A stretch of 64,000 bases of DNA, taken from the NCBI RefSeq assembly GCF_030253575.1, contig NC_080557.1, positions 42,298,501 to 42,362,500 of the forward strand. The letters are read 5' to 3'. The translations under genes and the position numbers were made by a program. The number at the start of each line of letters is the position of its first letter. The stretch's first letter is position 1. The notes beneath the pieces are model-generated. The model was not told the origin of the DNA. It did no database searches and saw nothing but the letters and a program-made list of their open reading frames with translations. The stretch is from Rhododendron vialii (taxonomy: Eukaryota; Streptophyta; Magnoliopsida; Ericales; Ericaceae). This document shows, piece by piece, positions 5,301-51,954 of this stretch.

Positions 5301-8300
5301 AAAATGTAAAACATTAAGACTTTTACCCAAATATTTTTTAAAATGTTCAAGAAAAAAACCCAAAAAGTCTTGGATATTTGCAAAACAAATAGGGTAAAAG
5401 TCACAATTTTTTTTTACTTTTTCAATTTCTCCCGTTGAGTCAAACCAATAATACACAAAACTTTGACGCATGCAAAACTAACAAATGCAAAATAAATAAA
5501 AAATTGAATAAGAGAAAAATAAAAAGTCAAGTTGACTTTTGACTTGTTTTTTTTTTTTTTTTTAGAAAACTAGGCAGGCATTAAAAAACTTTAGGCATTT
5601 TGTATGGGGGAAAGCCTATATATCCAATACACCACCAATTTGTTGAAAAAGCTTTCCTCCTCCTTTTTTCATTTCCAGAATCACTGGGAGTAGAACGAAT
5701 CGGGGTTTTGGTAATTTTATCTATATTGTTATTGTTGAAAGTACATATTGAAATGTAATTCTTTATGGGTTGCAAACGCGTTTTCCGCTAGTTGGTATAA
5801 ATGAAATTCAAAAATAGCCTTGATATCTTGTCCTACATCTGTTTGCTTATTTGGATTCTAGACTTTTCGAAAAATGCTACTTCATTTGTCCTATAAAGTT
5901 GACCTCCTACAATTAAAATTACTTACAATATTTGAACTTAAAAAATATATGCTTGGTAAAATAATTTTTTACTTTTTTACACCGTTCAAATGATCATACC
6001 AATATCTATCAAATAAAATTCATACTGTACAAAAATTTCTTTTGATTAATACATTAGTTTTAAACTTAAAATTAGGGGTGTCAAATGGGCGGGTTTGGGC
6101 CAAATTGGGTAAGTTATAAGTGGGTTGGGTCTTTAATGGGTCATTGACCCATTTAGACCCAATTAGTTAAGAGCCTAATTATTCATACCCAACCCAACCC
6201 ATTTATTTGAAATCAAACCCGACCCGCTCATTAACTCAATTAAATTAAAAATGATTAAAATACTTATATACACTAAAATGACCATATCACCCTTGTACAT
6301 TTAAATGACCAAATTACCCTTGCATACTAAAATTACCATAATACCCCTATATACTAAAATAACCAAATTAACCCTGTATACTAAAATTACTGAACCAAAT
6401 GGAGATTCTGTTAAAAAAAGTGAAAGTCGTTTCCCATCTCTTTTCTTTCCCTGTTCTTTTTTTTTCCTTTAGCGTGGATTTGGATTGAAAAGTTAAGTAA
6501 CTTATTTTTTTGTCTTTATTTGAATTTTTTTTTGCATTTGTTTGTTTGGGTAAAACTTTTTTGACTTATTAATTCGGCTCAATGAGAGGAATCGGAAAAG
6601 TACAGAAACTCATAATTTTTTTGAATAAAGACAACCAGCATATTAACTAATCGATTACGATAAATTAGACCCGATTTTGCAGTACCTCGACGTGACATTA
6701 ACTAATCACCCGTATTGTTATCTTGTTACTCTATCCATCTCTCTCCATTTGTTACCCAAAAAACATTCCTCCAAATCCGAGCCAAACAAAGCAAAATATT
6801 GTAAATGCATGTATTCCTGTTTTTCGAATTTGAAACAATTTTTAGATTCCAGCGTTCATGTGAGATGATTGCAATTTTAACCTGGAATTTTTTATTTGGA
6901 AATGAATTCGTTAATGCTTCGGGTGGGGACTCATCTCATGTGGTAATTAATTATCTGAACCAGGAGTAGTCCTCGATCCCTCGAAAGCGAAAAAAATTTC
7001 AGTGCCGAGCGGGTACACGTGGTGCCCGCTCGCGCATCTGAACCGTCGATTGTGTGTTTGAATGGCTTAGTTGGAGAGAGGAAAAAGAGAGAGAAAGTGT
7101 TGGGATGAGAGGAGAGAGAAGATTTCAATCCGATCCGTTTAAAAATGTATTGGACGACTGAGATGTGCCAAGCGAATACCATGTGGGATATACTCGCTCC
7201 GCATTGAAAAATCCCTCCTCGAAAGCTACTTCGCGTTTGCCGTGGTTCATTGCCTTTGACAGAAAGCTTTGAAATGCAATTGGTCGATTATTTATTCTTT
7301 TACTTTATTGGTAGTTCTATTTTTTTGTTGGGTAATGTTCATAATCCATTGGGCATTTAAGTTGATCCAATTGAAACCCAATTAAGACCCAATAATAAAT
7401 GGGTTAGATGGGTTTGGACCCATTCTAACCCAACTAATAAATGGGTTGGGTTGGGTCTATTTTTTAATAGATGGGTTTGGGTTTCTTAATGAGTCTGGGT
7501 TTAATTTGCCACCCCTACTTAAAATTAGGGAATTGACTTCTACTCTCCCCTTTTTACCATATACATTCTATTTTTTGTCCTTATTCATGTGAATTTACCT
7601 TTTTACCATTTTCATAAGTTCACTTTTTTACACATTAAGAGACAATAGAGTAAATTCATACCAAAAAAAGACAAAAAAAAAAAGAATGTATGTGATAAAA
7701 CAAAGAATGTGAAAGTCAATTTCTTAAAATTACACGTAATTTCATAAGAAATCAACTTTAGGTATAAAATGGAATAGTACTGTTGGGAAAGACTTTTTTA
7801 TTGGAGACAGAAACTAGTAGCCGACAAAGCTAATCATGAGTTAAAAATCGCTTTAACCGTTTAGGAATGTCTGAGAACTTTCTCCTTCCCAAAAGAAGAT
7901 GTCCACATTGTCCATGCATCCAATTACATAAGTCAAATGATGTCCACACGACGGCGGCTCAATTAGATACTACTGTACTAGATTCTTTGGGGTGGTGGAA
8001 TCCATTTCGGAGATGGTGTATTTAATTATCAAAATTGCATATATGCTATGGGTACAACACTTTTGTGTATAACATTTGGATACCATCTTGCGTGAGACTA
8101 TTTTAAGATCTCATACAAACGATTTGAGCAATTCTTCAATTTGTTCAAAAAAAAATTTGAAGGGTTCTTATAAAAGAACAGTTCAGCCGGATATCGTATG
8201 GACAAAAAAAAACATATGTATTTGCTTACCTATATCTGCCTGAACTAATTTTGTACAGGAACCCTTCAAAAAATATTCTGAACAAATTAAATTAAAAGGC

Positions 8301-16092: not shown

Positions 16093-16659
16093 GGCAAATG
16101 TGAAGTTTTATTCAACTGTGAGGCGAAAGCCTACACAATAGAGATGAACCTCATGAGAAAAATGGGCGTCCACAGACTGAACAAACTATTAGCAAGGACA
16201 ATCAGGGCACAGTACGTGCAGCCCTATTTCAAACTCACTTAGTGAGATCAGATTCGCAGAAAATAAAATTGATACACATGATCAACAAACCACTTGACTA
16301 AATCCGGATAAGAATGAAATAAAACAAAAAATGCACTCCCTTCCGTCATTGAGCTGCCATTTTCTTGCAAAAAATAGAGATTGATTATTTGTTCCCCTAA
16401 TGTATTTGTTTAGTAATTTGTTCCCTTAATGAACTATCAATTGGGTTGAATAAGATTATGGACTTATGTTTTTATATAATTTGGGTATTTGTATTCATCT
16501 ACTACTTGTAATTACAATAATGATAATAAAAATAATAACACACTAACGATCTACGGGCCGAAAGTAGCGATAACATGAATGACTACAAAGATTACTAGAA
16601 ATTTCGTAGATAATAACAAAATTACAAGGATTCGCAGCCTCACAAAATGGGTAGAGGTG

Positions 16660-16995
16660 TCAAATGGGCCGTGCCGGCACGGGCACGGCACGGGCACGGG
16701 CACGGGGCGGCACGGCACGTCACAGGCACGGTCTTGGCCTGGCACGGCACAACACGGCACGGTTTTAGTGGGCTCGGGGCACGGCACGGGAACGAAAATG
16801 GACGGCATAGCACGGGCACGGCACGAAAGTTGGCCTAGCACGGCACGGCACGGCACGATCGTAGATGAGCACGGGCACGGGCACGGAAAGTGAACAAGAA
16901 CGGCACGGCACGGCACGGTTCTAGCAAGGCACGGGCACGGGCATGGGCACGGGCACGACATGGGCACGAAAGGGCACGGCACGAGGCACGGAAAA
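16660..16995 (+). repeat. Left subterminal GGCACGG repeat array
   Basis: Dozens of GGCACGG/GGGCACGG words fill this stretch, with an unusually high GC content for the window. In hAT elements such subterminal motifs are transposase-binding sites; the same word recurs in the right end at 30440-30830. Confidence 0.85.
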
Positions 16996-17592
16996 ACAAA
17001 AAAACAAAAAATAAATAAGCCAAATGGCTTTTTTTAATTTAAAAAAAATTAAACAATTTCTATTCGGTCAAAAATATTTGTTTACTTTTTTTTAAAGGTA
17101 AACAACTAAGATATTTAATTTTTTTTAAAAAATGATTTCTTAACAAAATCATGTTTTTAAAAAATCATTTTTTTACTTTTAAAAAATTATCAATTTTTAT
17201 TCGGTAAAAAATATTTGTTTTGTTTTTGTTAGTAAAATAAGCTTTGGACATTTGGTTTGTAAATTTAGCAATACAAGATAAAAAGTAAAATTAAAAAAGC
17301 TTATCAAAATATTTATGGTATGAAAGGAAATGTGCAAGAGTCATATATTATTTACCCCAAATCTAACGAGAAATAAGAAAAAAAAGTGTCAAACAAAACA
17401 TTTAAAAAAAACGTAGTTAAAATAAGAAAAATAAATAAATTAAAAGGTGTTGGCTAGACAAGGACTTAAACCCAAGTCCTTAGATTCTTTCATACACAAA
17501 CAAACCACTATGCCACAAATTAACTTGTGGCCTTGTGCTATAGATTTGAAAAATTAATATATAATATGTAGCTCTATTATATTAAAACGAGG

Positions 17593-18395
17593 CCATCAAG
17601 CAGTAGCCACACAATCACGATGATCAATACCATTCAATGCGTTCATTTTGTTATGCTTAGTGTTTTAATCATGGGATTCTATTTTTTTCTGCGTTGGATT
17701 TTGAAAGATCTTTCATCGGCATGCTAATTCATTATTTGATTGAATTTTGTTTACGTCCGATCAAGTATGTAATGATAAGCATTATACTTGATTATTGGCA
17801 TGAATGATCTAATCCCTCCCACGTAAAAGTTAGATGGTTCCAATTTTTAAAAAATAGCTTGGGCGGCCCTCAAGTAGTACATTATAAGACTTTAATGCCT
17901 CTGGAAGCACAGAATGTGTTCCGATGATGTGGTTTCCGACATTCGATTATCACATATTCAAGTGAGAATGATAAATTTGATAAGACGTTAAATCATAACG
18001 GTTTAGATCGAACATTCGGGAAAAAAAGTCTACAGCTACCTTTCAAATCCATACATTGAACTTGGTTGGTTATGAACCAAGGTATTCTGCTATAGTGTAA
18101 CGTATGTTAGCCACACGATCACAAAACAAATATGACAATCCATACCGTTAATTTTGTTATTCTCTGTGTTTTAATGACTCTCACCAATTTTTGGGTCTAT
18201 CGGATTTTTAAAGCTTCTTCATCGACACGCAGATTAATTAATAGGAAAATGAACGCTATAAACAATCAAGTATATAACGATAATCAATTTACTTAATTTT
18301 TAGCAGGAATGATATAATCTCTTCCACATAAAAGATAGACAGTTCCGATTTTCAAAAAATAGCTCGGACGGCCCTCGATACGACTCTACGAGAAT
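17593..18395 (+). repeat. Diverged direct duplication of ~290 bp
   Basis: 17593-17880 and 18098-18390 share order and sequence: TAGCCACACAATCACGATG / TAGCCACACGATCACAAAAC at the start, and AAAAAATAGCTTGGGCGGCC / AAAAAATAGCTCGGACGGCC at the end. It lies between the left end and the transposase leader of the 14.2-kb hAT. Confidence 0.65.
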
Positions 18396-18469
18396 TTTCG
18401 ATAAGTTGGTGCATATGGATTATGGTGTCTCGCATGTACCTGATCACACGGATCGTATAAAAAGAATGA

Positions 18470-18960
18470 GATGTCTGCTGCTAGGTCTCATTTTCCGATC
18501 TCTCTCGAACTCTCTCAATCTCAAACTCAGACTCTCTCTCTCTCACTCAACGTCTCTTTGACTCTGTTCTCTCTCTGGTCCTCTGACGAGCCTAACGTTC
18601 GGATTCTGAACTATAATCAACTCTCACTCTCTCTTTCTGACTCACTGGTCACACCTCTCTCTGTCTCGCTGCTCTCCTTTCTCTCTCTCTCTCTCTCTAA
18701 TCTCAAATGGTGACTCGGTGACTTGGTGCTACCGTGACTCGGTGACCATCACAACTGAACTACTGAAGGGATCAGATCTGAACTCAGTGACCATCATCAT
18801 CTCACTCTCTCAACGTCTCTGCCTATCCGACAGTCCGACTCTCTCATCACCTCAGGTCCTCAGCCGCTGCTCACCGACTCACAGACTAGTCACCGTATCT
18901 CTCTTTCTCTCACAGGTACCTCTATCACTTCCCTCTCCAATCTCCACTTATTGTTATCTA
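18470..18960 (+). promoter_or_regulatory. CT-rich probable leader of the hAT transposase transcript
   Basis: About 490 bp of pyrimidine-rich sequence (repeated CTCTCTCT, ACTCGGTGAC) with no conserved protein. An acceptor-like TTGTTTTCAG ends at 19920, 13 bp before the transposase ATG, suggesting a 5' UTR intron of about 1 kb. The interpretation is inference from position. Confidence 0.4.
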
Positions 18961-19933
18961 CTGACTACTGAAATTAGGGTTTTGGCTTGATTTTTGAAAT
19001 TAGGGTTATGAAATTAGGGCTTTTGTTAGTAATATCTGAAATTAGTAACAAGAAATTAGGGGTTTTCACTTTTGTTACTAATTTCAAAAATTAGGGTTAC
19101 GAAATGGCTTTTGATGATTTTGTACACACACCTACACTAAATGTTTGAAGCCTGCCTGTAGGCCCTGTACTGCCGCATGTTATTGATAAGAGGAAATAAA
19201 AAAATTGAAACAATTACTTGTTGGTGAGAAAGCGTGCACAATTCATGGGGCATGTTTGCATTTGGAATTGTTCCAGTAAAAAAACAAAGGACGGAATTGG
19301 AAACACGGAACCAAGTGTCAGTGTGTCACACTTTTATGGCCATTGTAATGATTTTGCCGAGAAGCATTGCTGAACTATTCATGGGAAATAGGGTTTTTTT
19401 TCCTTCAAAAGAGCACAACGATTTCAAGAAAATTAAGAAATGTGTCCAATACAAAGCTTGTTATCGGAGCAGAATTGTCAATCATGACTATTTTATTTTT
19501 GGTTAACATTTAAGTGCATGCATTTAGGCGATAATTAGTTTTGATGACAGATTGACAGTGGAAAAATTTTCAACTAGTTTTTCATTGATAACGTTAGTAT
19601 AAGTTATGAAAAGTACTGTGAGAGCTAAGAAAGAATACCATGTTGTCACTTGCTATAGTGGTAAAATCGGTAATTGGTACTTGCTATAGTGGTAGAATTG
19701 GTAGTTGCTACTTACTAAAGTTTTGAATACAATTAATTTTGGTATAGTTGCTACTTAGTACTTACTCTAGTTTAAAATTAGTAGTTGGTCAAATTTTGAA
19801 AACAGTTTTTATTTTGCTCTATTTGTACATTCTAGGTTTTCTGAACATGTAGGTTATTAACTTATTTAGATGTTATTAACTGATATTCTATTGTACTAAT
19901 TTTCTCTGTTTTGTTTTCAGTTTTTTATAGGAG

Positions 19934-22033
19934 ATGGATCCTAAAAACATTCATTTTGACGATGAGGGTTTAAACCCTGACTTGGATGATGATGGACCAA
20001 CTCCACCACTGGGAAGGGAGTCTGTAGGTGAAGCTGCTTCAAACATTGCAGCAGGTTCTACTCCTATAGGCGTAACAGGCTGTATCCAATCGGCCCAGTC
20101 TGGTGAAACAAGGCGTCGCTCTTGGGTATGGAATCATTCAACCATAGTTAAAAACTTTAAAAATGCAGAGGGAATCGATATAGGAGCTAGAGCTGTATGT
20201 AATTATTGTCCAAATAATTATACCTGCGTAAGTAAGGGCGGTGTAGGGCATCTTCAACGACATTTACAAAACAAACATAAAAAATTTAAACATACCATAG
20301 TTGGCCAAGTCAGTGGTGAATCTGGTGGTTTTCATTCCGTAGGTAGTACTTCGAATTTCGTATATTCTCAATCTAGTATGAGAGAGGGATTGGCCCGTTA
20401 TGTAGTTGCAGCAGAACAACCATTTACGTTTGGTGATGATATTAGATTTGAATATTTTGTCAAACATTATCTTAATCCTCTTTTTTCGAAAGTTTCTAGA
20501 AATACAACCATAAGTGATTCTTTGAAAGCTTTTGTTGAAGTTAGAAAATTTTTGATTAGTGAAATTGCGAAACTTGGTAGTTTAGTCTCTTTTACTTCTG
20601 ATTTGTGGAGTGGTCGAAATAATCTTGGTTACATTTCTGTGACAGCTCATTACATAGACTCCAATTGGATTTTGAATAAAAAAATTATTGCTTTCCGTTT
20701 AATGGAGTATCCTCATAATGCTATGAACATTTTTCAATGTATAATGGGTGTTTTTAGGGAGTTTGAAATTGTTGATAAAGTTTTCAGTATTACTTTTGAT
20801 AACCATTCTGCTAATACTAGTTCAATTGATTTGTTCAAACAAAATTTGACTACTCCTCATGCTGGACAATTTTTTCATGTGCGATGTGTATGCTATATCA
20901 TTAACTTAGTTGTGCAAGATGGTTTGAAACATATAGGACCACAAATAGAAAAAATAAGAGATGCTATTCTTTTTATTGCTACTTCCCCAGCTAGGCAACA
21001 AGAATTTGAAGGATTGTGTGTAAGTTATAACGTTAAACAAAAACAAATCAAAACTGGTGTGAAAACTCGTTGGAATTCAACATTTCTTATGTTAAAATCT
21101 TGTAGGAATCACATTGATGTAATTTCTGCTTATATTAATTCCAAGCATATGCGTACTGATGGTGGTTTAACTCGAGCTGATTGGAAGATTGCTTTTGAGT
21201 TTATGAATTTTTTGAAAAAATTTTATGCTGCTACCTTAGCTTGCTCAGGTGTTCGTTATCCTACTACTTGTCTTGTGCTTAATTACTTGTATAATATGAG
21301 TCACACTCTTAAAATTCATAGAACGAAACCAAATTTTGTAGCTGCTTGTAAGTCTATGGAAGATAAATTCAACAAATATTTCGAGAACATGCCAACAATA
21401 TTTATTGTAGCTTCTGTAATGGACCCAAGGATTAAGGTAAGGGGTGTTGAAAAGCTCTTAAAAGGGATTGGTGAGAATTTAGGGATTACATTACCTTCTA
21501 CTTCTACTGTCACTGCACAGTTGACTTCTATATATGCTTCATATGAGTCTAAATTTGCATGCACTACTACTGCTGCTACTGCTGCTCCATATTCTTCAAG
21601 TATTAATGACCCATGTTCTACAAGTAACAATGACAATGACCCATCTTGGTTTCTAATTTCAGGGCCAGGTAGTAGTGAAACTTGTTCACGATCTGAACTT
21701 ACTCAATATTTAGAGATAAATTTAGTTACAGTTGAGGACTTACAATCATTTGATATCTTAGCTTGGTGGAAAAAAACTGAAAAGACATTTCCCATTCTTT
21801 CTATCATGGCACGTGATTTACTAACACCACATGTGTCTTCAGTGGCTTCCGAATCTGCTTTTAGTGCAGGTAATAGAGTGTTGGATGAGAGGAGGAGCAG
21901 ACTAGCTCCCGACATATTGGACTGTCTTATATGCTTAAAAGATTGGGAGGATGCACGTCTTGGAATTCAAAAATGCCATCCTAGAGATGAATTCAGAGAT
22001 TATTTTTCGGACTCTGATATCGATGCTGATTAG
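19934..22033 (+). CDS. hAT-family transposase (Ac/Tam3 type), 699 aa, uninterrupted
   Basis: It cuts and pastes hAT elements. In order: an N-terminal BED zinc finger (Cys89, Cys92, His110, His115, preceded by the aromatic RRSWVWNHS); an RNase-H-like catalytic core with Asp223 in FTSDLWSG and Asp289 in ITFDNHSAN; the TRWNSTFLML block; a region matching the plant hAT-like DUF4413 segment (ASVMDPRIK); a Ser/Thr-rich insert; and the C-terminal dimerisation domain ILAWWKKTEKTFPILSIMAR ... SSVASESAFS ... RVLDERRSRL, with catalytic Glu640. Length is normal and the frame is open throughout. One oddity: the usual RCxxH motif reads RCVCY, with Tyr321 for His. The ATG follows a likely 3' splice site (19920). 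It lies inside matching TIRs and TSDs, so it is probably the element's own enzyme. Confidence 0.92.
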   Translation: MDPKNIHFDDEGLNPDLDDDGPTPPLGRESVGEAASNIAAGSTPIGVTGCIQSAQSGETRRRSWVWNHSTIVKNFKNAEGIDIGARAVCNYCPNNYTCVSKGGVGHLQRHLQNKHKKFKHTIVGQVSGESGGFHSVGSTSNFVYSQSSMREGLARYVVAAEQPFTFGDDIRFEYFVKHYLNPLFSKVSRNTTISDSLKAFVEVRKFLISEIAKLGSLVSFTSDLWSGRNNLGYISVTAHYIDSNWILNKKIIAFRLMEYPHNAMNIFQCIMGVFREFEIVDKVFSITFDNHSANTSSIDLFKQNLTTPHAGQFFHVRCVCYIINLVVQDGLKHIGPQIEKIRDAILFIATSPARQQEFEGLCVSYNVKQKQIKTGVKTRWNSTFLMLKSCRNHIDVISAYINSKHMRTDGGLTRADWKIAFEFMNFLKKFYAATLACSGVRYPTTCLVLNYLYNMSHTLKIHRTKPNFVAACKSMEDKFNKYFENMPTIFIVASVMDPRIKVRGVEKLLKGIGENLGITLPSTSTVTAQLTSIYASYESKFACTTTAATAAPYSSSINDPCSTSNNDNDPSWFLISGPGSSETCSRSELTQYLEINLVTVEDLQSFDILAWWKKTEKTFPILSIMARDLLTPHVSSVASESAFSAGNRVLDERRSRLAPDILDCLICLKDWEDARLGIQKCHPRDEFRDYFSDSDIDAD

Positions 22034-22132
22034 GGGGAGATGCATTGCTGATGCTGGTAACTTATGAAGGCCTTAAATGGCAACTTAATGTTGCCGCATC
22101 CAGGTGTTATTCTTTCTATATCTAAGTGTGTG

Positions 22133-22292
22133 CTATGATGATATAATCTGAGCGTAATTTGTATTTAGTGTGGCTATGATGATATAATCTGAGCCTAATA
22201 GGTGTTTAGTGTGGCTATGATGATATAATCTGAGCCTAATAGGTGTTTAGTATGGCTGTGATGATTCATGATATAATCTAAGCCTAAACTGC
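22133..22292 (+). repeat. ~41-bp tandem repeat behind the transposase
   Basis: Four degenerate units start with GCTATGATGATATAATCTGA and end TTTAGTGTG. It lies about 100 bp after the transposase stop, probably in its 3' UTR. The stretch to 23058 has no gene. Confidence 0.8.
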
Positions 22293-23777
22293 AGAAAATA
22301 GCACGCCAACCAGCAAGTTTCATAGGTTTTGGTGTTTGGTGGTATGAAAAAAGTATGAACATGGGTGTTATCTTATTTGTGGGCAATGATGAATTAAAAT
22401 TCAATTTATAATTAAGGTGGATACATTGGCACCTTGGCGGGGTATCATTAAATGCAGCCATGAGTATCATTCTAATTTTCAAAATATATTTTTTCTGAGC
22501 CCAATCATGTTTTCATTACTACCTTGATGCCATGCCTCTGTTTGGTTTAGCATGTTGTTCTTCTGCAGTTTTGATGCTGTTATCTGGGCCAAAAGGCCTA
22601 TATTTGAGGCTGCCCTGTGTGTGAAAAAAGCTGTCATGTGTGTAGCAGGTTTTACTCCAGTTTTCACCTGTTATTTGGAGTTTGAGAATAATGTGTATGA
22701 GTGTGTGCACTGGCATATATGTGTGAAACTACTGTTGTTGCTACTGCTGCTGTGAGTGTGGCAACAGGTGTGGTTTTGGGCAGTTTTCAACTAGTTTGGT
22801 AGGTTTGGTTTCTGTTTTTGGGACAATTTTTAGGATTTGCATGCTATTCTGAGTTCTCTGGCTATGATGCTTAAAAATCTGAGCCAAAAAGCATATTTAC
22901 AGTACAGCTGAGAGGTATCAGGTATGCTCTCTCTCTCTCTCTCTCTGTGTGCGCAAACATGTGTACAATGGATTAATGGTGACATGCTAGTTTAATAGGA
23001 ACCTTTTTTCTTAGGGACTGCTCTAGAACCTTTTTTCTCTTTGATACTTGTTTCATATCTCTTTAAGCAAAACTTCTGTGGTGCTCCCAAGTGGTATGGG
23101 AGCATCATACTCCAAATGAATTATAGCCTTTAGATTGAAAATAGATAAATCACAGCCGTTGGATGAAAACAAGTAGAGTGGTTTTGGTAAATATGAGGTG
23201 GTTTTGACCAAAAAAACGGAAGATAACTTACCACAAAAACAGGAAATACTTACTATTGATAAGAGAATACTTACCATTCTATAAGGTAAAACTTACCATA
23301 CAAACAGGCATACTTACTACAACTGGTTGGACAGGTAACAAGTTACCAATGAAGTTACAAAAAAAAAAAAAAAAGGAGTAACTTTTTTTTTGACGGGAAA
23401 ATTTGGAGATTTTAGGGATTTATATATTAGAAGAATTATCTAAAAATATGTGTTCATTTATAAATCTAGTTTAAAATTTTAATTGGTTATAAAAATACAA
23501 TTAGAAGAATTATCTAAAATAAATTTAAAAAATATTTTTCATAATTTCCGAAGGACATTATAAATGTATTTAATTAATTAATTTTCAAATAGTCATTTAT
23601 TATAGATATATTTAAGTAACTTAGTTTTAAATATTATGGAAAAAATAATATATTTATTTAATAATTTGATAGCTTACAAATTTAATGAATATGTATTATA
23701 AAATAATGCTACAAGTTGATTGTTACAACAAAATTGAACAATAAATATATTTTGTTTAATAGCTATTGAATAATTTT

Positions 23778-23927
23778 GTAGGATTCTTAATTAAATTTAT
23801 GGTAGTATTTAATGAAATTAGGCTATTCAATTTCATTAATATAGTTTATAGTGTAGGATTCTTAATTAAATTTATGGTAGTATTTAATGAAATTAGGCTA
23901 TTCAATTTCATTAATATAGTTTATAGT
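23778..23927 (+). repeat. Perfect 75-bp tandem duplication
   Basis: Two adjacent identical copies (23778-23852, 23853-23927) start with GTAGGATTCTTAATTAAATT. Lack of divergence suggests a recent event or gene conversion. Confidence 0.93.
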
Positions 23928-25084
23928 GATCAATATGATATATTTTGCAAATCTAACAACTAATAATGTTGATACTAATATACTTGGCAGCAATCAATCA
24001 ATGAATATTGATTCATTTGTAATTGATTAATCTGGTTATATGTTCAACCAATTGATCAAACGATTTGAATCGATTAAGATTATAATTGGCAGATATGGTA
24101 GTTAACAATGATGTTGATTAATAGTGATTAGTAAAAATTAATATAATTGGCTAAAGTAAGCTAACTAATTTGTTTAATTGCTCAACTACAGACTTATCTA
24201 TTTCAATTCTTCAAGTTACACAATTAGCAAATTTCAAAAATGGTTATTGATGGTTAACATTGACCACTTAGCAAATGAATGAGTAATAGTCTTTGAGGTT
24301 AACATTGATCACTTAGCTAATGTAGGAGTAACCACTAGTGAACCAGTAAATTGAAATATCTCATTTATTTGATCCTTTTTTAAAAGTAATTTTATTAATA
24401 TAAATGCTTTTATTTCATTTATCATAAAAGTAATAAAATAGATCCAAATAAAATTTAATGTAGTAGGTAATATGATATTAATGATGATGTACATAAATGT
24501 ATACCTACACGTCATTAATGTCATACTTACTATAGAATAAAAACTTACTTACCAAAGTACAAGGCCAGAGATACCACAAAAACTGAATTTTTACGATGGA
24601 CTAATATTCATTGATAATACTTACTACATGGTTGGCAATACTTACCACGAAATAAGGAAAAAATGACTATACGCTTAAACCATTTTTACCACACAAACTT
24701 ATCACGTTTTGCCAATTGCCTTGTTTACCTACCACCAATTATGACATTAATTTGGTAAGCCTTTTATTATCTAGTTAGTTGATAGACTATAATTTATTTG
24801 TCCATTTACTAATTTTCAAACTTGAATTTTGTAGACTGCTAACTGGTTAAGAAATTTCGAGAGTGTGCAAGCTCAGTTCCATGGCAGCAACGTTGGAGGA
24901 TGGAAAGATGATTTCGGACAAGATTTGTGAAGGATAAATGTAACGTTTATTTGTAGTAAGGCATTGAGTAGGGACAAGAAGTTTATTGTAATATTTTAAT
25001 TTAGTAAAATTAAGGCAATGATCTGGACAAGAACTTATCTGTAGTTATGTAAGGCAGTGAGTACGATTATTTAAATAGTAACAA

Positions 25085-26115
25085 TGCCAAGATTTTAGCA
25101 AGCATACCCAACCTATATGGTAAGTATTGCTTTGACAATGAGAAAAATGTCCAGATTTCTGTAAGTTATTGAGTTGGTAAGAATCCACAGATTTTAGTAA
25201 GCGCACCCTGTATAAATGGTAAATAATGCCCAGATTTTTGTAAGTACGGTTATTGAAATTGAAATGGTAAGAACTTCTTGATTTTAGTAACCACAACCTG
25301 TATAAATGATAAGTAATACCCTGAAAATGAGAAGCATGCCCAGATTTTATTGAAATTGGAATGGTAAGAACTTTCAGATTTTAGTAAGCACACCCTGTAT
25401 AAATGGTAAGTAATGCCCTGAAAATTTGAAGCACGCCCAGATTTTTGTAAGTACGGTTATTGAAATTGAAATGTAAGAATTTTCAGATTTTAATAAGCAA
25501 ACCCTGTATAAATGGTAAGTAATGCTCTGAAAATGAGAAACACGCCCAGATTTTTGTAAGTACGGTTATTGAAATTGAAATGGTAAGAATTTCCAGATTT
25601 CAGTAAGCACACCCTGTATAAATGGTAAGTAATGCGCTGAAAATAAGAAGCATGCCCAGAATTTGTAAGTACGGTTATTGAAATTGAAATGGTAAGAATT
25701 TCCAGATTATAGTAAGCTCACCCTGTATAAATGGTAAGTAATGCACTGAAAATGAGAAGCACGCCCAGATTTTTGTAAGTACGGTTATTGAAATTGAAAT
25801 GGTAAGAATTTCTAGATTTTAGTAAGCACACCCTGTATAAATGGTAAGTAATGCTCTGAAAATGAAAAGCACGCCCAGATTTTTGTAAGTACGGTTATTG
25901 AAATTGAAATGGTAAGAATTTTCAAATTTTAGTAAGAACACCCTGTATAAATGGTAAGTAATGCTCTGAAAATGAGAAGCATGCCCAGATTTTTGTAAGT
26001 ATGGTTATTGAAATTGAAATGGTAAGAATTTTCAGATTTTAGTAAGCACACCCTGTATAAATGGTAAGTAATGCAGTGAAAATGATAAGCACGCCCAGAT
26101 TTTTGTAAGTTCGAT
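25085..26115 (+). repeat. ~110-bp tandem repeat array, about nine units
   Basis: Anchors GTACGGTTATTGAAATTGAA recur at 25451, 25560, 25669, 25779, 25889 and (variant) 25999, a spacing of 109-110 bp; the first units are more diverged. Each unit also has ACACCCTGTATAAATGGTAA and GCACGCCCAGATTTTTG. TAAG occurs repeatedly in each unit. The units are not separated by unique spacers, so this is a satellite-like array. Confidence 0.93.
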
Positions 26116-27003
26116 TTTTAAGAGCTTAACAATCTGGTACAAAAGTGACGTGGGTACCAGACATAATCGAATACATAGCTTAAACCAAAGCTTATACAAA
26201 GCAGCCAGCAGCAGTTCAATAGCAAACAACAGTCATAACAGAACAGAAGGCAGCCTTAGGAGCATAGCAGCCAGCAGTCAGCAGCACAACACCTAGACAG
26301 CAGCAGAGGGGAGAGAGATAGAGGCGTTTAGAGCTGCGGAGGTGGAGGCGTCCGGCTGTGGAGGTAGAGGACGATTGACGAGAGGAGGAGGCGAGGAGAG
26401 AGAGGCGACTGTGAATTAGGGCTCAAAATTTTTAACTGTGATGCAACTTTTTTTTTCTTTTACCTGGTCGTGATGCAATTGGAACAGGACGTAGTGAGAG
26501 AATGAGAGGAGAGAGAAAAATTACATTCAGGGGATTTGATGAATGGCCAGGATTAAAAGAATCACATCCTACGGTTCAGATTTGATGGGAGTACCATGCT
26601 CCCAAAACCAGCGGTTTTTGATGGGAGCATCATAGCCAGACGCCTCTTTAAGGCATATATGCATGCAGCATGCTAGTTAAGTGCCGCAGCTTTGGTACAT
26701 TTCAGTTCATCAAATCAAATGTAGCTTCCGTATTGAGTTTTCTTCCTGAATGTTGCCTTTTCTTTTGATACCATTACTTTGGTATCTCTGCATTTTGCAG
26801 TGGCTTTCCATTAAGATTTAATTATAGTTGCCATCTGATGCACTTGTCCTCTCTGTGGAGTAATTACCACACTCTGATTTCCGACAATTGTTTTGGAATT
26901 AGATAAACTAAACTTACTTGATATTAGTTTAAGCCAAATGTTCATTAAGTGACTTTTATGACTAAGAGGACATTAGCTGCAAGTATGGGAGATGAGTTTT
27001 GTG

Positions 27004-27004
<1 letters not shown>

Positions 27005-27044
<40 letters not shown>
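27005..27044. repeat. (CT)n microsatellite
   Basis: An uninterrupted CT run inside the 14.2-kb hAT, between the nested element and the RPN1 fragments. Confidence 0.95.
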
Positions 27045-27047
<3 letters not shown>

Positions 27048-27332
27048 AGATACTTACCTTCCTGCTGGTGTTTTAATGTCAATGCCTTGCAGATACCTAC
27101 CTGGACATTAGCTGCAAGTATGATATGTTATGTATCGTACATTAACATTTGTATGTGCATTCATGTATAGAGAAATTAATAACTTTTCTTTGTATGATAC
27201 TATTAGGTTAAGTCAAAGTTGTTTGTTATACAAAGAAGCAGGATTTGTATGTGCATTCATGATTTATGTTCCACTACTTTGTGCAATTTGTTTAGTTCCA
27301 ATAGAAGCTGACTAATGTACATTATTTGTCAG

Positions 27333-28303
27333 ATCTGTAGTAAATTGATTCCCATCCTTGGAGATAGCAAAGCATCTCTTGATGTGATTGCATTTACTGC
27401 CATATCATTGGGCTTAGTATATGTTGGTTCCTGGTACAGGGAATGTGCTCAAGGTGCTTACTCTTAAGCCCTTCAATTCCACCTGGAGTTCTCTGTTCTG
27501 CAGATGAAATAGCTAACTTTGTATTTTCACACAGGTCCAACACCTTCTGGGTCAGTGCACCCAACATCTTGAGAAGGGAGAAAGCCACCAGGGACCAGCT
27601 GTACTTGGGATTGCTATGGTAGCAATGGCTGAAGAATTGGGTATTGAAATGGCTATTCGCTCGTTAGAGCATCTTTTACAGTATGGGGAGCAGAATATCA
27701 GAAGGGCAGTTCCTTTGGCTCTTGGTCTCCTCTGTATATCGAACCCTAAGGTAATCTATCCAGTGATATCTTGCAAGCTGAGCACTCTTGAAGTGGCGTT
27801 TAGAGTGCAGTTGATATATTGCTAAGAAAATCTGTGATTGGATGTTGTGATCGAGGTCAATGTTATGGACACATTAAGCAGACTTAGTCATGACACTGAT
27901 ACTGAAGTAGCAATGGTATTCTAACTGTTGTTTAATTGAGAATTAGTGTTAGTACTATCTAATTCTTGTTATATTTCAAATATTGTACATTTCTGGATTC
28001 TACAGGCTGCTGTCATCTCCTTGGGGTTGATTGGTGCCGGAACCAACAATGCTAGAATAGCTGGCATGCTTCGCAACCTGTCAAGTTACTACTATAAAGA
28101 AGCTAGCCTCCTTTTCTGTGTAAGCTTTTTCTTGTAGTTTGTTTCATACAATGGCTTCTATACTTTCCTCTGATTTTTAAAGGGATCTGCTTGTTTTGAA
28201 ATGGGCTACTTACGCAGGTTCGAATCACTCAAGGTCTTGTACATATGGGGAAAGGCTTGATGACTCTTGGACCATACCATTCGGAGCGCTTCTTGCTATC
28301 CCC
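27333..28303 (+). pseudogene. RPN1: Captured exons of proteasome regulatory subunit RPN1 (PSMD2)
   Basis: Five segments with GT-AG borders encode consecutive parts of RPN1, the 19S base scaffold subunit: 27333-27453 (LIPILGDSKASLDVIAFTA; then GTGNVLK), 27535-27750 ([37 protein letters not shown]), 27856-27915 (VNVMDTLSRLSHDTDTEVAM), 28006-28119 (AAVISLGLIGAGTNNARIAG) and 28218-28303 ([20 protein letters not shown]). In the first segment roughly 60 family residues between VYVGS and GTGNVLK are deleted, which shifts the frame. The N- and C-terminal parts of the ~890-aa protein are absent. Retained introns show capture at DNA level, not retroposition. It lies within the 14.2-kb hAT in the transposase's orientation, so read-through transcripts could splice these exons. 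Confidence 0.93.
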
Positions 28304-28525
28304 GTAAGTGTGTTTATTATGAGAAATTGGGCTCTCCATAGGAACTTTTTAATTCTAGGACTAGAAAAATTCACAATCAAGCGCAAGATAAATTGGTTTC
28401 ATTGATTGATTTCGTAAAAAAAGGGGAAGCTTTCGCTACTGGAATGACATCAGGTCTAATTGACTTTTACTTCAACCTACCATTCCAAGTGATAGAGTCC
28501 ACTTTTGAATTTAGCTATGACTAGG

Positions 28526-28760
28526 GTTGGGAATTCCGGACACGACCCGTTAACACAACACGAAGTTTTGGGTCAATCACTTTTTGACATGAACACGAAT
28601 ATGACATGACCCGCCAACACAAAAATTAAATGGGTTGAACACAAATTTGACTCGTGTAACTCGATATGGACATGGATAACTGTTTAATTTTTCATGTCGA
28701 CACATTAACTGAAACGAGACTACATGACATGACACGATTAGTTTTGATTCTTTGAATTTC
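28526..28760 (+). mobile_element. hAT-like terminus fragment
   Basis: It begins TAGGGTTGGGAATTCCGGAC and continues with ACACGACCCG, GACATGACCCG and CATGACACGATTAG words typical of hAT subterminal sequence. No matching right end was found, so it may be a truncated nested copy. The following 28761-29600 holds no recognisable protein. Confidence 0.45.
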
Positions 28761-29776
28761 CTACTTTTTTAGGAGATCTGATTTTCTGCTTGGTTAACTT
28801 GCGATTTTCTGTCTCGTGGTATGTGAAATAAATTTTGGGTACTTGGTCTAACAGATTCTGTTGTTATGGTGCCAATTGCCAAATGAGCATCTTTATACGG
28901 GCGAGATTGGGTTGTATAAGCAGCTGACTGTTGGAAAGAGGATTCAGTCAACTGTTCAAATGATTTCTATTTGGTCAAGGACGTTGTCAAATGCTTCGTG
29001 TTTTCACTTATTTAACGGGCTGAATCATTAACTGGAGCTAAAGGAATATAAGTTCTGCAAGGGCTGCAAAGCTTTCTTGGCCGTGTAAAAGGAATCCTGA
29101 CCCTTGTGGCATTGCCTATTAAAATGTAGTTAATTTTGTCGCTATCAGTTGAACGGTTTTGTTGCTGCTGTTTGTTTGCTACTCAAAGATGGTACTAGTC
29201 TGCTGCTGTTTGTGTGCAGACGTGCAGTCCGTGAGGTGCAGCTCCAGGAAACCATGGGGGGCTGTACCTGGGTGCTTTTGGCCTTCCAAGTAGACTATCC
29301 GAGATCATTCCACCATTTTCTAATGTCGTGGAGTTTAGTTTGAGGCATTCCGAAATTCAAGCATTCGGAGGCATTCGGCCTTGTTGGTTCAAATGAATTC
29401 TTTTTTAGCTTTTGATTTATTTTCAAGGTTGTTTTGGTTTTCTGCTAGACTGCTATGAAATTTGTTGTTTTCAGTAGGTGTGAGCTTCAATTGTAACAAC
29501 TTCTAGTGGTGCCCTACTGCCCTTTGAAGGCCCTTAAAGTCATGTCTTGACATCCAAATACATCCTTAGTGGAGTAAACTCAGTGTGCTTTGTCCATTTT
29601 TTTCACTAAGTACCCGCAACATGGCGCATTTTTATTGGACAGTCATTTTTGGGTACAAACACCATCACAAAATATTCAACCTTCCTCACAAGATGAAGCA
29701 TTATGGTTCATATACACATTATTACTTTTCTCTCCAGTACATCAAAACTAGCTAAACCTATTTCAAACGACATATT

Positions 29777-30165
29777 TTACTGCTCGACAACGATCTTTCC
29801 CGTAGCATGACCGTCGATGCTCTTGGCCCAGGCATCTTCAGCCTTGCTAAGAGGGTACTTCGAGTCGACAACCGTCTTAAGCTTCCCTTCCTTCACCAAC
29901 TTAACTAGATACTCAAGATTCTCACCTTTGGGAGAGTAAAGCAGTGGCACAATCCGCTTCTTAGAGCAGGTGAATATCTTCAGTGCAAAAGTCATCATGG
30001 TACTAACACTAGGAGTCAAATCTATTACCTTACCATTTCCACTCAAACTGGGCTCAAAAATAGACCACGGAATCCCGATGTTACAATGGATCACAGCATC
30101 GTACTTCCCAAATGGGCTCCTCAATGCGGCCCCATCGGGCGTTTTGTAATCGAGCACGGATCAAC
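29777..30165 (-). pseudogene. Captured C-terminal part of a CEQORH-like quinone oxidoreductase
   Basis: A 126-codon open frame (30157 to 29777) reads LDYKTPDGAALRSP, IPWSIFEPSLSGNGKVIDLT, ENLEYLVKLVKEGKLKTVVD and AEDAWAKSIDGHATGKIVVE. This is the C-terminal third of the plant chloroplast-envelope quinone oxidoreductase homologue (zinc-less MDR family). The stop codon is at the native position; the N-terminal GroES-like part and the Rossmann glycine motif are missing. It sits antisense to the transposase inside the 14.2-kb hAT, next to its right subterminal repeats. With no start region it is called a gene fragment, though the frame is intact. Confidence 0.9.
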
Positions 30166-30439
30166 GGAGCGTAATAACCAACCAAGCTCCCATAGCAAAG
30201 TTTAACAAAGTTTCCAATTTACATAAATAAATGCATATGACAAAAGTTATTATAAAATCCAAGAATATGGAAAAGAATAACCATAAGATAAAAAAGAACA
30301 AATATCTTGGCTAGAAAATTAGTTAAATATCTTGGCAAGAATATCTTGGCTAGAATATCTTGACCTGTTTTCAAATAAATTCCAAGACAAGGACTAAACA
30401 AAATTCGTATCCATCATTGAACTGATTGAAGGAATTTAT

Positions 30440-30830
30440 TTAAAACAGCACGGTCCGACCCGACCCGACCCGACTAAGTAAACGGGTCGGCACATCTTCA
30501 CAAGATTGAAAATAGCACGGCACGACACGATTTAAGAAAATGGGCCGACACGACACGACACGATTGAAAACGGCACGGCCCGACACGATTTAAGAAAAAG
30601 GGCCGGCACGACACGACACGATTTAAGAAAACGGGCCGGCACGACACGACACGATTGGCAAATGGGCCAGCACGACACGACACGATTTAAGAAAATGGGC
30701 CGGCACGGCACGACACGATTGACAAACGGCACGGCACGGCACGAAACGATTTGAGTAAAATACTGTAAATGGGCCGGCACGGCACGACACGAAGCACGGT
30801 TAGCACGGAGTTAAATGGGCCATGCCGTGC
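30440..30830 (+). repeat. Right subterminal repeat array of the 14.2-kb hAT
   Basis: Repeats of CACGACACGATT(TAAGAAAA)GGGCCGGCACG, about 30-50 bp apart and mixed with GGCACGGCACG words, precede the right TIR. They match in vocabulary the left array at 16660-16995. Confidence 0.85.
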
Positions 30831-30899
30831 CATTTGACACCTCTAAAAATGGGGGTAAGCTCCTCGTCATACTCTAATCCTCCATACTCGTCTAAACTT

Positions 30900-33560
30900 T
30901 TAAATTAGCCCTTATTCTGGATAACCAACAGTGATCTGACCCATTCATCTCATAGCCTCATAGATAATGTCTTCTGAAGCGTAGAATTATCGATACAAAA
31001 CACAAATATAATATTCAAAAGATTACGATGTAATTTGCTCGTCATGCCCTCAATTTTTAACATAAATAACAATACCATTTTAAATACAAATTCTCACAAT
31101 AGTACATACAGTACCCCAAATTACAATACAGTTTCTGAATTTCACAAATCTGTCAATTGATACAGTATTCTAAAATAGAGAAAATAGTACAATGTAATTT
31201 AATTTTCGATGAAAGACAAGTACTTCAGAAAATAACTTTAGTTTGTGATGTCTGCGTGCACTTCACACCCTCCAAGACTGTGTCCCTGTAGTGTACCTGA
31301 AAATGATAAGCTGAGCTACACTAGCCCATTAAAGAAATCTATACTCAAGCTATATGAAAATGCGACGAAGTATGTACAAAGAGTGAAAGAATTCGATAAG
31401 TGAACATCAGAAACACAAGTTTATCACAACGGAAGACAGACTACGGCCAAAGAGTTCCAAACAACTTGTAAGTATTCCTAACTGTTCACATGTCATGTAG
31501 AAACATTATTAAAATCACATCAATCAAACGTACTCACAATAGGTTCGCAACCACTTCGACATTTCTCATAATCTCAACCACTCTCTATTTTCACCCCTTG
31601 CGTTGCAGTCTACATTTCCACCCCTTGCGTTGCAGTCAACGTCACCCATTATTTAGGTCTCTGTATTACCACCTTTTGCATTGTAGTCTGCATTTTCAAC
31701 ACTTGCGTTGCAGTCACTTCCACATTCCAATTCTTAATTACAGCCACTCAAATTCCAATAATCATAAAAATGCATTCAATAAACACTTCTCTAATCTCAA
31801 GACACAATAAAGCACATTAATCAAACTGACATATAGGTCAAACACGCATCGACAATCACATTTCAATGTAGTCTAAACGATCAATCATAACAGAACATAG
31901 ACTGATAAATTAGTACACGCCTTTTTTCTTAGTACATCACAATATCTTACTGACTCTATAGCGACTCTACAACATACTACTCGCTAATATTGATACTTAG
32001 ATCTCATGGAACGAGCGCCAAAGAGTTTAAAGGATAAGTGAATCTTGCAGACACGCATTACTATGCTACCACTCAGATCACTAGAAAAGCTCACGTCTAC
32101 TAACTATACTTTCCACAACGTCTCACTTAGCCTTTGGTACTCCTAAACAACCTTACATCACATATTCCATTTACAACGACACTAAAATTACGATTAATGG
32201 GTATCAAAGGAATTTGAATGCTCATTAACTCATTAGAACTCGAGTAATCAAGCTTAGGGATGGTTTAATGATGTTTAAAATGTGTTAGAAGTGATCGGAA
32301 GTCAAAATAGACGAACGAGAATCAACAGACCAAAACTGTTCCAGAGAGTAGTCAGTGTTCGACAATTCATTAAAAATTCCATACTCAATATTTTTCAATG
32401 ATTCTAATGCCAAAAGTTCACCAACTTACCAATCTTTAAAACCCATAAGGACCCATAACCAATAGCGTCGTTTAACCATAGCAAACGATGAAAAACGCAG
32501 CTCTGTACACTGCCCAAATTTCCAAATTTCAGTTCAATCTTCTAAAAATCACTATAAATCGAGTTCTTACTACTTTTGAACGATTCCAGTCCCAAAAGTT
32601 GCGCGATTGAACGAAGCTTATAAGGTATGAAGGACCCTAGTCAAATCTGCACTCCAAGGATGGTTAAACGGGCATTTACCGAAGCAATACGAATCTGTCG
32701 CGCATCAACGTGACAAATTGACACACCTCCACTCAAATGATCATAACTTTCGGTGTACTAAGAGTTTTAAGGCGATTCCAGTGACAATACAAAGCTGACT
32801 TCAAGACCTCGAAATCAATATAAAGTTTACATGATCGGACATCAGACGAGAAAGTTGTAGCCATTTAAAGTTGGGCGCAAACCCAGAAAACGAGCAGAAA
32901 CAGCAGAACATGAGACAGATTCGTGATCTGATTTGTAAAATCAGCCATTAATTCAATTCTCAATGGTTTTGGGTGATTCCAGCGGCATTAGAACGGGCTC
33001 TAAGTCTACTCTATTTCATATGAAGAAACCAAAATTAAGTTCTAAGTTTAAGAAGGCGTAAAACCCCAAAAACGAAGACCCTGTTCTGCAGATTCTTGAA
33101 AATGGAAGAAACAACCTCAAACAATGAAACAATGCACGATCTAGGTACATAAACACCGTATAAACACATAACAAGAGTAAGAAATCCCTACATGGGTTTT
33201 GAGCAAAACCCGACCCTTTGACCAAGTCAACCGAGCTCCCACGCGGTCCGATCAAGATTTTTCTTGGATATTCGGAAAACCCGTGCTCCGTATAGCAACT
33301 TTAATTCTTGGATTTCGTCCGAAATCACTCTCTAAAGTATTGAGATCGAAGAGAGAAGGGGGGAGAGAGTTTCGGAGGAGAGGAGCAGAGAGTTTGGCCG
33401 AGAGAGCGAGAAAAAGAGAGAAATGGAAGAAAGTAGACTCCTGAGGAAATTATTGGCATGGGGAGTAATCCCATGCTCCCACCACTTACACAAGTGCACC
33501 TCTTGCACAATTACCCTTATATCCTTCCACAAAAATGTCACACCGAATATTCGTACCGTT
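30900..33560. mobile_element. Probable LTR-retroelement-derived non-coding sequence
   Basis: No protein-coding sequence. Features: a short degenerate repeat CCCTTGCGTTGCAGTC (31597, 31623 and two weaker copies up to 31720), CAGAACAGCAGAAC-like words, and a purine-rich GAGAGAAGGGGGGAGAGAG block near 33350. The texture resembles non-coding parts of large plant LTR elements, but no LTR pair, PBS or pol was found, so this assignment is tentative. 33560-34090 shows nothing recognisable. Confidence 0.3.
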
Positions 33561-45956: not shown

Positions 45957-46637
45957 GTATATAGTAGTGTTTTTTTTTTCCTGCTTCCGAGAACCTTCAA
46001 AACCCTTCTTCTTTTTCCCCCTCAAAATTCATACTAAACCTAATTAACGATAATCCCCTTTTACGGCACACAAATTTCCAGACCTCTCTCTCTCGCTCCC
46101 TCTGCACTACACTCTCACTCTATCTATCTTCCTCTGAGGTACGCAAAAATACGGTTCACTTTCATTCCCTTCGTTATTGATTGTTCTCTGCCTTTAATTC
46201 ACGCTTGATTTCTAGGGTTTCTGAAATTGAACTTCTATAATACGATTGTTTGATTATAAGTTGATGTTATGTGTCATATAACAGCATGAGTGACTAGCAA
46301 ACATGTATGAGAAATTCTGGCTGCTTTTTCTTTGTTCCTCATCTCTTACTCCTAGCTATAAATTTGTGTTTTTTTTAAAATTAAATATGCATGATTCACT
46401 CTGAATCACTTGTTTTTAAGCAATACCCGTGATTCCCAAGATTCAGTCTTTTAGCTACTTCTATGAGGTACAAATTTTTGTTTACTTATACTCTTTTATT
46501 TGCCGACTACCCGTTTTTGTGCCCATAACTTGGTCTGTTTGTTAGGTTTCAAATCCAGAAATAAACCTAGAAATTCCATTACTTGCTGGAAATTTAATTA
46601 GGTGAGAGTTATTGATGGTAAGTTTTGATTTTGATAG
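45957..46637 (+). promoter_or_regulatory. Putative core promoter, leader exon and 5' UTR intron of the first GRAS gene
   Basis: A TATATAG lies at about 45958, a CT-rich leader at 46082-46110 ends at CCTCTGAG|GTACGC (donor 46139), and the acceptor TTTTGATAG is at 46637, 17 bp before the ATG. A long leader intron of about 0.5 kb is typical for GRAS LISCL genes. The TATA assignment is weak; the splice sites are better supported. Confidence 0.5.
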
Positions 46638-46654
46638 GGATTTTGGGATCGCCG

Positions 46655-51803: not shown

Positions 51804-51937
51804 AGGAGCTATGCAGCCTAAATCTTCTTGGGTTTTATCTGAGGTATGTGTTTGACGGTTCTTCAAATTAATCTCTCTGTCAATCAAAATATTTGGTTAT
51901 GAGCTTAGGTTACTATTTGGGTATCAATTGCCTGCAG
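51804..51937 (+). promoter_or_regulatory. 5' UTR exon with a short uORF and a 94-bp leader intron
   Basis: Exon 51804-51843 follows TTTGTTGCAG and ends TCTGAG|GTATGT; the acceptor CCTGCAG is at 51937. The exon carries ATGCAGCC; after splicing it reads MQPKSSWVLSEFLSH and stops before the main ATG at 51955, so a 15-codon upstream ORF may damp translation of the GRAS protein. Confidence 0.5.
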
Positions 51938-51954
51938 TTTTTGAGTCATTGAAT

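What the first reader, a model, noticed from the sequence alone, without database searches (positions are those of the whole stretch)
16652..30845. A 14.2-kb hAT transposon with intact transposase and two captured host-gene fragments
A perfect 16-bp TIR (TAGAGGTGTCAAATGG) and an identical 8-bp flank AAAATGGG lie 14 kb apart. They enclose a 699-aa open transposase, subterminal repeats at both ends, multi-exon RPN1 sequence, a quinone-oxidoreductase fragment and another nested transposon. Transduplication is well known for Pack-MULEs and Helitrons; large gene-carrying autonomous hATs are less documented. If real, this element can mobilise host exons together with its own transposase.
Basis: partly seen in the sequence, partly recalled or inferred. 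Interest (0 to 1): 0.9.

Follow-up and report, generated by a model that had tools for sequence, protein, structure and literature searches.

The report
Rhododendron hAT transposon carrying gene fragments
A 14-kb plant DNA transposon in a rhododendron chromosome carries broken pieces of two host genes next to its own transposase gene; it is a clear example of a kind already described in other plants, and its transposase probably no longer works.

Summary
A hAT-type insertion of 14,194 bp lies at 16652-30845 with a perfect 16-bp terminal inverted repeat and 8-bp target duplication AAAATGGG; no inner copy of that repeat exists at 4 or fewer of 16 mismatches. It holds a 699-aa hAT transposase frame, an intron-bearing RPN1 fragment, the 3' end of a chloroplast quinone-oxidoreductase gene and a nested, probably Mutator-like, insertion. 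One Rhododendron vialii gene model matches the RPN1 mosaic at 168/168 residues; another, on a different scaffold, shares its deletion junction at 164/168. Two parts of the interpretation weaken. 'Intact transposase' is doubtful: H321Y and D375G break nearly invariant catalytic-core positions, and the matching His is needed in Hermes. Gene-carrying hATs are in print: grapevine Hatvine-6, maize Ds2/Ds-l4, Pack-hATs, Ac macrotransposons, though one of these papers calls capture rare in hATs. Empty-site and genome-wide tests could not be run. New member of a known kind.

The parts
16644..16651 (.). left copy of 8-bp target-site duplication AAAATGGG
16652..16667 (+). left terminal inverted repeat TAGAGGTGTCAAATGG
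16668..17002 (.). left subterminal array, 30 GGCACG in 16652-17002
17604..18376 (.). diverged direct duplication (17604-17871 and 18108-18376, 71%) upstream of the transposase frame
19934..22033 (+). 699-aa hAT transposase frame; D223, D289, E640 kept; H321Y and D375G at nearly invariant sites
23059..23067 (.). left 9-bp duplication CTCTTTAAG of the nested insertion
23068..26643 (.). nested insertion, probably Mutator-like; no reading frame of 100 aa or more inside; ends align imperfectly; 110-bp x 7 tandem array at 25347-26110
   Evidence: class by 9-bp duplication and inverted ends is inference
26644..26652 (.). right 9-bp duplication CTCTTTAAG
27333..28303 (+). RPN1 (26S proteasome non-ATPase subunit 2) genomic fragment, exon pieces with introns; internal deletion near 27433-27438 joins what lines up with about residues 537 and 610 of chain 8amz_Z
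28522..28537 (+). hAT-end-like TAGGGTTGGGAATTCC followed by CACGAC-type repeats; 9/16 identical to the outer TIR; no convincing partner or TSD
   Evidence: reading as a hAT end is recall and inference
29777..30157 (-). 3' end of a chloroplast quinone-oxidoreductase-like gene, 126 aa
30420..30829 (.). right subterminal array, 11 CACGACACGA and 11 GGCACG on + strand in 30420-30845
30830..30845 (-). right terminal inverted repeat CCATTTGACACCTCTA
30846..30853 (.). right copy of 8-bp target-site duplication AAAATGGG

Best explanation
The 16652-30845 interval is one hAT (Ac-type) cut-and-paste insertion in a Rhododendron chromosome, almost certainly R. vialii (shown: TIR, TSD, transposase; species inferred from perfect protein matches). 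It is a mosaic that picked up genomic DNA, introns included, from an RPN1 gene and from a quinone-oxidoreductase gene, and was later hit by a probably Mutator-like element. The RPN1 mosaic is very probably present on a second chromosome too. The likeliest route of capture is fusion of two neighbouring hATs: a left one with the transposase and a right one ending at 30845, moved as one unit from their outer ends after the inner ends were lost (inferred, from the unlike subterminal arrays and the hAT-end-like sequence at 28522). Template switching during gap repair after excision is the alternative. This copy's own transposase is probably catalytically dead or weak (H321Y, D375G), so further movement would need transposase from an intact relative.
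For: Perfect 16-bp TIR and 8-bp TSD, next-best pairing 5/8; no inner TIR at 4 or fewer mismatches, nearest 5 of 16. Pfam Dimer_Tnp_hAT 3.5e-25, hAT-like_RNase-H 2.1e-10; 88% identity over 100% to R. griersonianum P0001. RPN1 exon pieces have kept splice borders and match chain 8amz_Z 507-546 and 608-775. P0107, on a 49,061,468-bp contig, equals the window at 168/168, plus 24/24 of a peptide outside RPN1 exons at 27093-27164; its first seven residues can be read at 26001 inside the nested insertion. That length is the R. vialii haplotype A maximum scaffold (PMC10338486 passages). P0109, on a 39,472,952-bp contig, has 164/168, the same junction, and window segments 28411-28494, 28852-28956 and 29149-29340. 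H321: 84 of 90 homologs with a letter there have His; D375: 92 of 97 have Asp; these are the only two departures from columns 90% or more conserved with 60 or more letters, out of 106 homologs aligned.
Against: No empty site or second copy sharing both TIR ends was seen (own-genome search did not complete). P0109 shows a copy of the 27.4-29.3 kb part only; nothing ties it to hAT ends, so another agent could have copied it, and I could not rule out that its scaffold is the other-haplotype homologue of the 49-Mb one, in which case it would be an allele. P0107 could be this locus or an identical copy. The two subterminal arrays differ in motif and both lie in the same + strand orientation, odd for a single simple element. 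AAAATGGG occurs 8 times in the window. Tyr at the CXXH position also occurs in 3 of 90 homologs (P0027, P0062, P0063), and the papers tested alanine, not tyrosine. The fusion route is inference.
Confidence: 0.82

Rival explanations
1. The RPN1-quinone reductase mosaic was captured or copied by another agent (Helitron, Mutator-like element or segmental duplication) and merely sits inside, or was nested into, an ordinary hAT.
For: A probably Mutator-like insertion lies directly upstream; P0109 shows the RPN1 mosaic on another scaffold with no evidence of hAT ends there.
Against: The nested insertion is closed by its 9-bp duplication at 26644-26652, before RPN1 begins at 27333. I made no systematic search for another bounded element or for Helitron ends around 27333-30157, so this rival is only weakly tested.
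Confidence: 0.15
2. A fully autonomous, currently mobile hAT that carries host exons with its own working transposase.
For: Open 699-aa frame, D223, D289 and E640 kept, perfect TIR and TSD.
Against: H321Y and D375G in the catalytic core; passages report that alanine at the equivalent Hermes His abolishes transposition (PMC5225508) and that a Kat1 double mutant of both CXXH residues nicks but makes no hairpins (PMC4763223).
Confidence: 0.08
3. Two unrelated neighbouring hAT ends that only look like one element.
For: Unlike subterminal arrays at the two ends; AAAATGGG is not a rare octamer here.
Against: Identical 16-bp TIRs and 8/8 flanks; no inner partner TIR at 4 or fewer mismatches. 16 in 200,000 random flank pairs match.
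Confidence: 0.03

Closest known systems
Hatvine-6 hAT family of grapevine (PMC2528002; outline, abstract and passages incl. Table 2 seen)
   Same: hAT elements with similar transposase and TIRs whose remaining sequence often matches genic exons and introns
Ds2 and Ds-l4 elements of maize with gene fragments (PMC3260210; abstract and passages seen)
   Same: hAT ends, captured gene fragments with introns, foreign insertions inside
   Different: those are non-autonomous; the window element keeps a full-length transposase frame
Pack-hAT / Pack-TYPE elements (PMC8903248; passages and section 9 read)
   Same: hAT TIR, 8-bp TSD, captured coding DNA; fusion-of-neighbours model offered there
   Different: defined there as non-autonomous, without a transposase match
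Ac macrotransposons of maize (PMC9910405 passages; Ds-plus-Ac example moving about 100 kb mentioned in PMC3260210)
   Same: large DNA between outer hAT ends moving as one unit with 8-bp TSDs
   Different: whole Ac/Ds elements stand at the ends there; no inner ends were recognised here

Membership tests
hAT superfamily | 8-bp target-site duplication | tested here: met
   AAAATGGG both sides
hAT superfamily | short terminal inverted repeats | tested here: met
   16 of 16 bp
hAT superfamily | hAT transposase with C-terminal dimerisation domain | tested here: met
   PF05699 E 3.5e-25, PF14372 2.1e-10; Hermes chains, best E 3.2e-14
hAT superfamily | DDE catalytic triad | tested here: met
   D223, D289, E640 in conserved columns
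hAT superfamily | CXXH motif histidine (expected of active copies) | tested here: not met
   Tyr321 in place of His; 84 of 90 homologs with a letter have His; functional need from passages of PMC4763223 and PMC5225508. Bears on activity, not on hAT origin
autonomous element | transposase able to cut the element's ends | not testable with these tools
   two core substitutions argue against
Pack-TYPE (Pack-hAT) | captured coding DNA between hAT ends | tested here: met
   RPN1 and quinone oxidoreductase
Pack-TYPE (Pack-hAT) | no transposase match (packFinder rule) | tested here: not met
   full-length transposase frame; rule seen
Ac-type macrotransposon | recognisable element ends on the inner side as well | tested here: not met
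   no inner TIR at 4 or fewer mismatches; only a 9/16 hAT-end-like site at 28522
Hatvine-6-like transduplicating hAT | several copies sharing transposase and TIRs with different captured regions | not tested
   own-genome search unanswered (13 tries, last)

The most novel reading that the evidence does not exclude
A composite hAT in Rhododendron, built by fusion of a transposase-bearing element and a gene-carrying neighbour, has multiplied as a transposase-plus-host-exon unit, and its RPN1 mosaic is now annotated as a chimeric gene whose first exon comes from a transposon nested inside the transposon.
Probability: 0.3. Interest if true: 0.45.

Novelty: new member of a known kind. Interest (0 to 1): 0.3.

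Why it matters
It is a cleanly bounded, large gene-carrying hAT that keeps a full-length transposase frame, with a related mosaic on another scaffold and a published two-haplotype assembly (PMC10338486) in which the empty site can be sought. It gives a test case for how cut-and-paste elements acquire exons, and a caution that a database 'RPN1-like' gene model can be transposon debris.

Tried and rejected
Own-genome search for the TIR: the same request made 13 times, never answered. In-window empty site: no match spans the join; the joined flanks matched themselves plus partial repeats, the longest 223 bp at 75% to 6992-7211. Partner for the hAT-end-like site at 28522: in 26001-31000 six sites match CCAACCCTA with 1-2 mismatches (the one-mismatch site, 27740, lies upstream inside an RPN1 exon); its flanking octamer is found again only at 29452, 7 of 8 and not next to such an end. 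Chance pairing of the ends: rejected. Processed-transcript origin of RPN1: rejected, introns kept. Co-location of P0107 and P0227 on contigs of one length as proof of a linked pair: set aside, because P0227 differs from the window quinone-reductase piece (95%, other upstream sequence). Collections of viral, bacterial, phage, plasmid and E. coli DNA were not scanned, as they should not hold this plant. Helitron ends were not looked for.
Full report
Observation. The window holds TAGAGGTGTCAAATGG at 16652-16667 and its exact reverse complement at 30830-30845, flanked by AAAATGGG at 16644-16651 and 30846-30853. The unit is 14,194 bp. Among 30 pairings of TIR-core-like sites in the window, 2 have 8/8 identical flanks: this pair and a second, independent hAT of 1,445 bp at 6073-7517 with CTTAAAAT, which serves as an internal positive control; the next best has 5/8. 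Random 8-mer pairs match in 16 of 200,000 draws. Against this, AAAATGGG stands at 8 places in the window, so it is not a rare octamer. Inside the unit no further copy of the TIR is found in either orientation at 4 or fewer of 16 mismatches; the nearest have 5.

Transposase. The frame 19934-22033 (699 aa) matches Dimer_Tnp_hAT (3.5e-25), hAT-like_RNase-H (2.1e-10) and, just above the cut-off, zf-BED (21 against 20.6 bits), and Hermes transposase chains in the PDB (best 3.2e-14). Its best relatives are Rhododendron proteins; P0001 of R. griersonianum is 88% identical over the whole length. The DDE residues D223, D289 and E640 are in place. But in an alignment with all 106 homologs the window protein departs from columns 90% or more conserved (60 or more letters) at exactly two sites: H321Y (His in 84 of 90, Tyr in 3, Asn in 2, Asp in 1) and D375G (Asp in 92 of 97). 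Against 18 chosen Rhododendron relatives it also has G58E and P369Q as private changes. H321 lines up with the CXXH histidine of Hermes and D375 with a Glu just before the RW motif. Passages of PMC5225508 say that alanine at Hermes H268 completely abolished transposition; passages of PMC4763223 call it a severe defect and report that the Kat1 CXXH double mutant nicks but makes no hairpins. All this makes 'intact' unlikely in the functional sense. It is inference: tyrosine at this place was not tested in those passages.

Captured DNA. RPN1 exon pieces lie at 27333-28303; exon starts are preceded by AG and exon ends followed by GT, except at the internal deletion near 27433-27438, where an early exon is joined to a later one. 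Against chain 8amz_Z (895 aa, a 26S proteasome subunit 2 homolog; that it is spinach is recalled) the pieces cover 507-546 and 608-775 as printed. The piece is therefore genomic, truncated and not a working gene. The minus-strand frame 29777-30157 matches residues 203-328 of 5a3j, a putative chloroplast quinone-oxidoreductase homolog, and PF13602.

Nested insertion. CTCTTTAAG stands at 23059 and 26644; between them 3,576 bp have imperfectly inverted ends and a 110-bp tandem array at 25347-26110, and no reading frame of 100 aa or more. A 9-bp duplication and inverted ends point to a Mutator-like element (inference). Without it the hAT would be about 10.6 kb.

Other copies. Of the 120 RPN1 rows shown (609 hits), two carry the deletion junction, both R. 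vialii proteins. P0107 is identical to the window over 168 of 168 residues; it also has 24 of 24 residues of a stretch outside the RPN1 exons, 27093-27164, and its first seven residues can be read at 26001, inside the nested insertion. It lies on a 49,061,468-bp contig, the maximum scaffold length of R. vialii haplotype A in Table 1 of PMC10338486 (passages). I infer that the window is R. vialii and P0107 this locus, or a near-identical copy. P0109 lies on a 39,472,952-bp contig, has 164 of 168 with N64K, R142Q, T144A and P159L, and continues into window sequence at 28411-28494, 28852-28956 and 29149-29340. At position 144 P0109 has the Ala found in 8amz_Z, so it is unlikely to descend from the window copy: both seem to come from one captured ancestor. 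That the two contigs are different chromosomes, not homologues of two haplotypes, was not checked. This shows that the mosaic exists in a second version; it does not show that hAT ends moved it.

How it may have formed. The left array is GGCACGG-rich and the right one CACGACACGA-rich, both in the same + strand orientation. Together with a hAT-end-like sequence at 28522 (9/16 identical to the TIR, no convincing partner) this fits the fusion-of-neighbours model of PMC8903248 section 9 (read) and the Ac macrotransposon behaviour in PMC9910405 (passages). Gap-repair capture, named in PMC3260210 (passages), is the alternative. I favour fusion weakly.

Comparison. PMC2528002 (passages) describes Hatvine-6, a grapevine hAT family with similar transposase and TIRs and variable regions matching genic exons and introns. 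PMC3260210 reports 2 Ds2 and 9 Ds-l4 elements with gene fragments and calls this rare in hATs. PMC8903248 reports Pack-hATs. PMC8277862 assigns 208 Pack-TIRs of its metazoan set to hATs (passage; the set is 370 by its abstract). So the kind is known; size and a retained full-length transposase frame are the notable points here. Literature was searched only, in an open-licence library.

Limits. The own-genome search did not complete, so no empty site, copy number or second set of ends was seen. The structure prediction did not finish.

Noticed in passing
6073-7517: A separate 1,445-bp hAT with TAGGGGTGTCAAATGG / TAGGGGTGGCAAATTA ends and perfect 8-bp duplication CTTAAAAT.
   Followed up: partly
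28522: A hAT-end-like start TAGGGTTGGGAATTCC followed by CACGAC-type repeats, with no convincing partner; may be an inner end of a fused element.
   Followed up: partly
26001-26021: The first seven residues of the R. vialii model P0107 can be read in the tandem array of the nested insertion, so an annotated RPN1-like gene seems to start inside transposon DNA.
   Followed up: partly
R. vialii P0227, contig of the same 49,061,468-bp length as P0107's: A 195-aa quinone-oxidoreductase protein, 95% identical to the window's piece but with other upstream sequence; position on the contig unknown.
   Followed up: no
46625-48910 and 51928-53937: Two GRAS-domain reading frames (PF03514) in the same orientation.
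   Followed up: no
631-1896: Minus-strand reverse-transcriptase frame (PF00078) of 421 aa.
   Followed up: no
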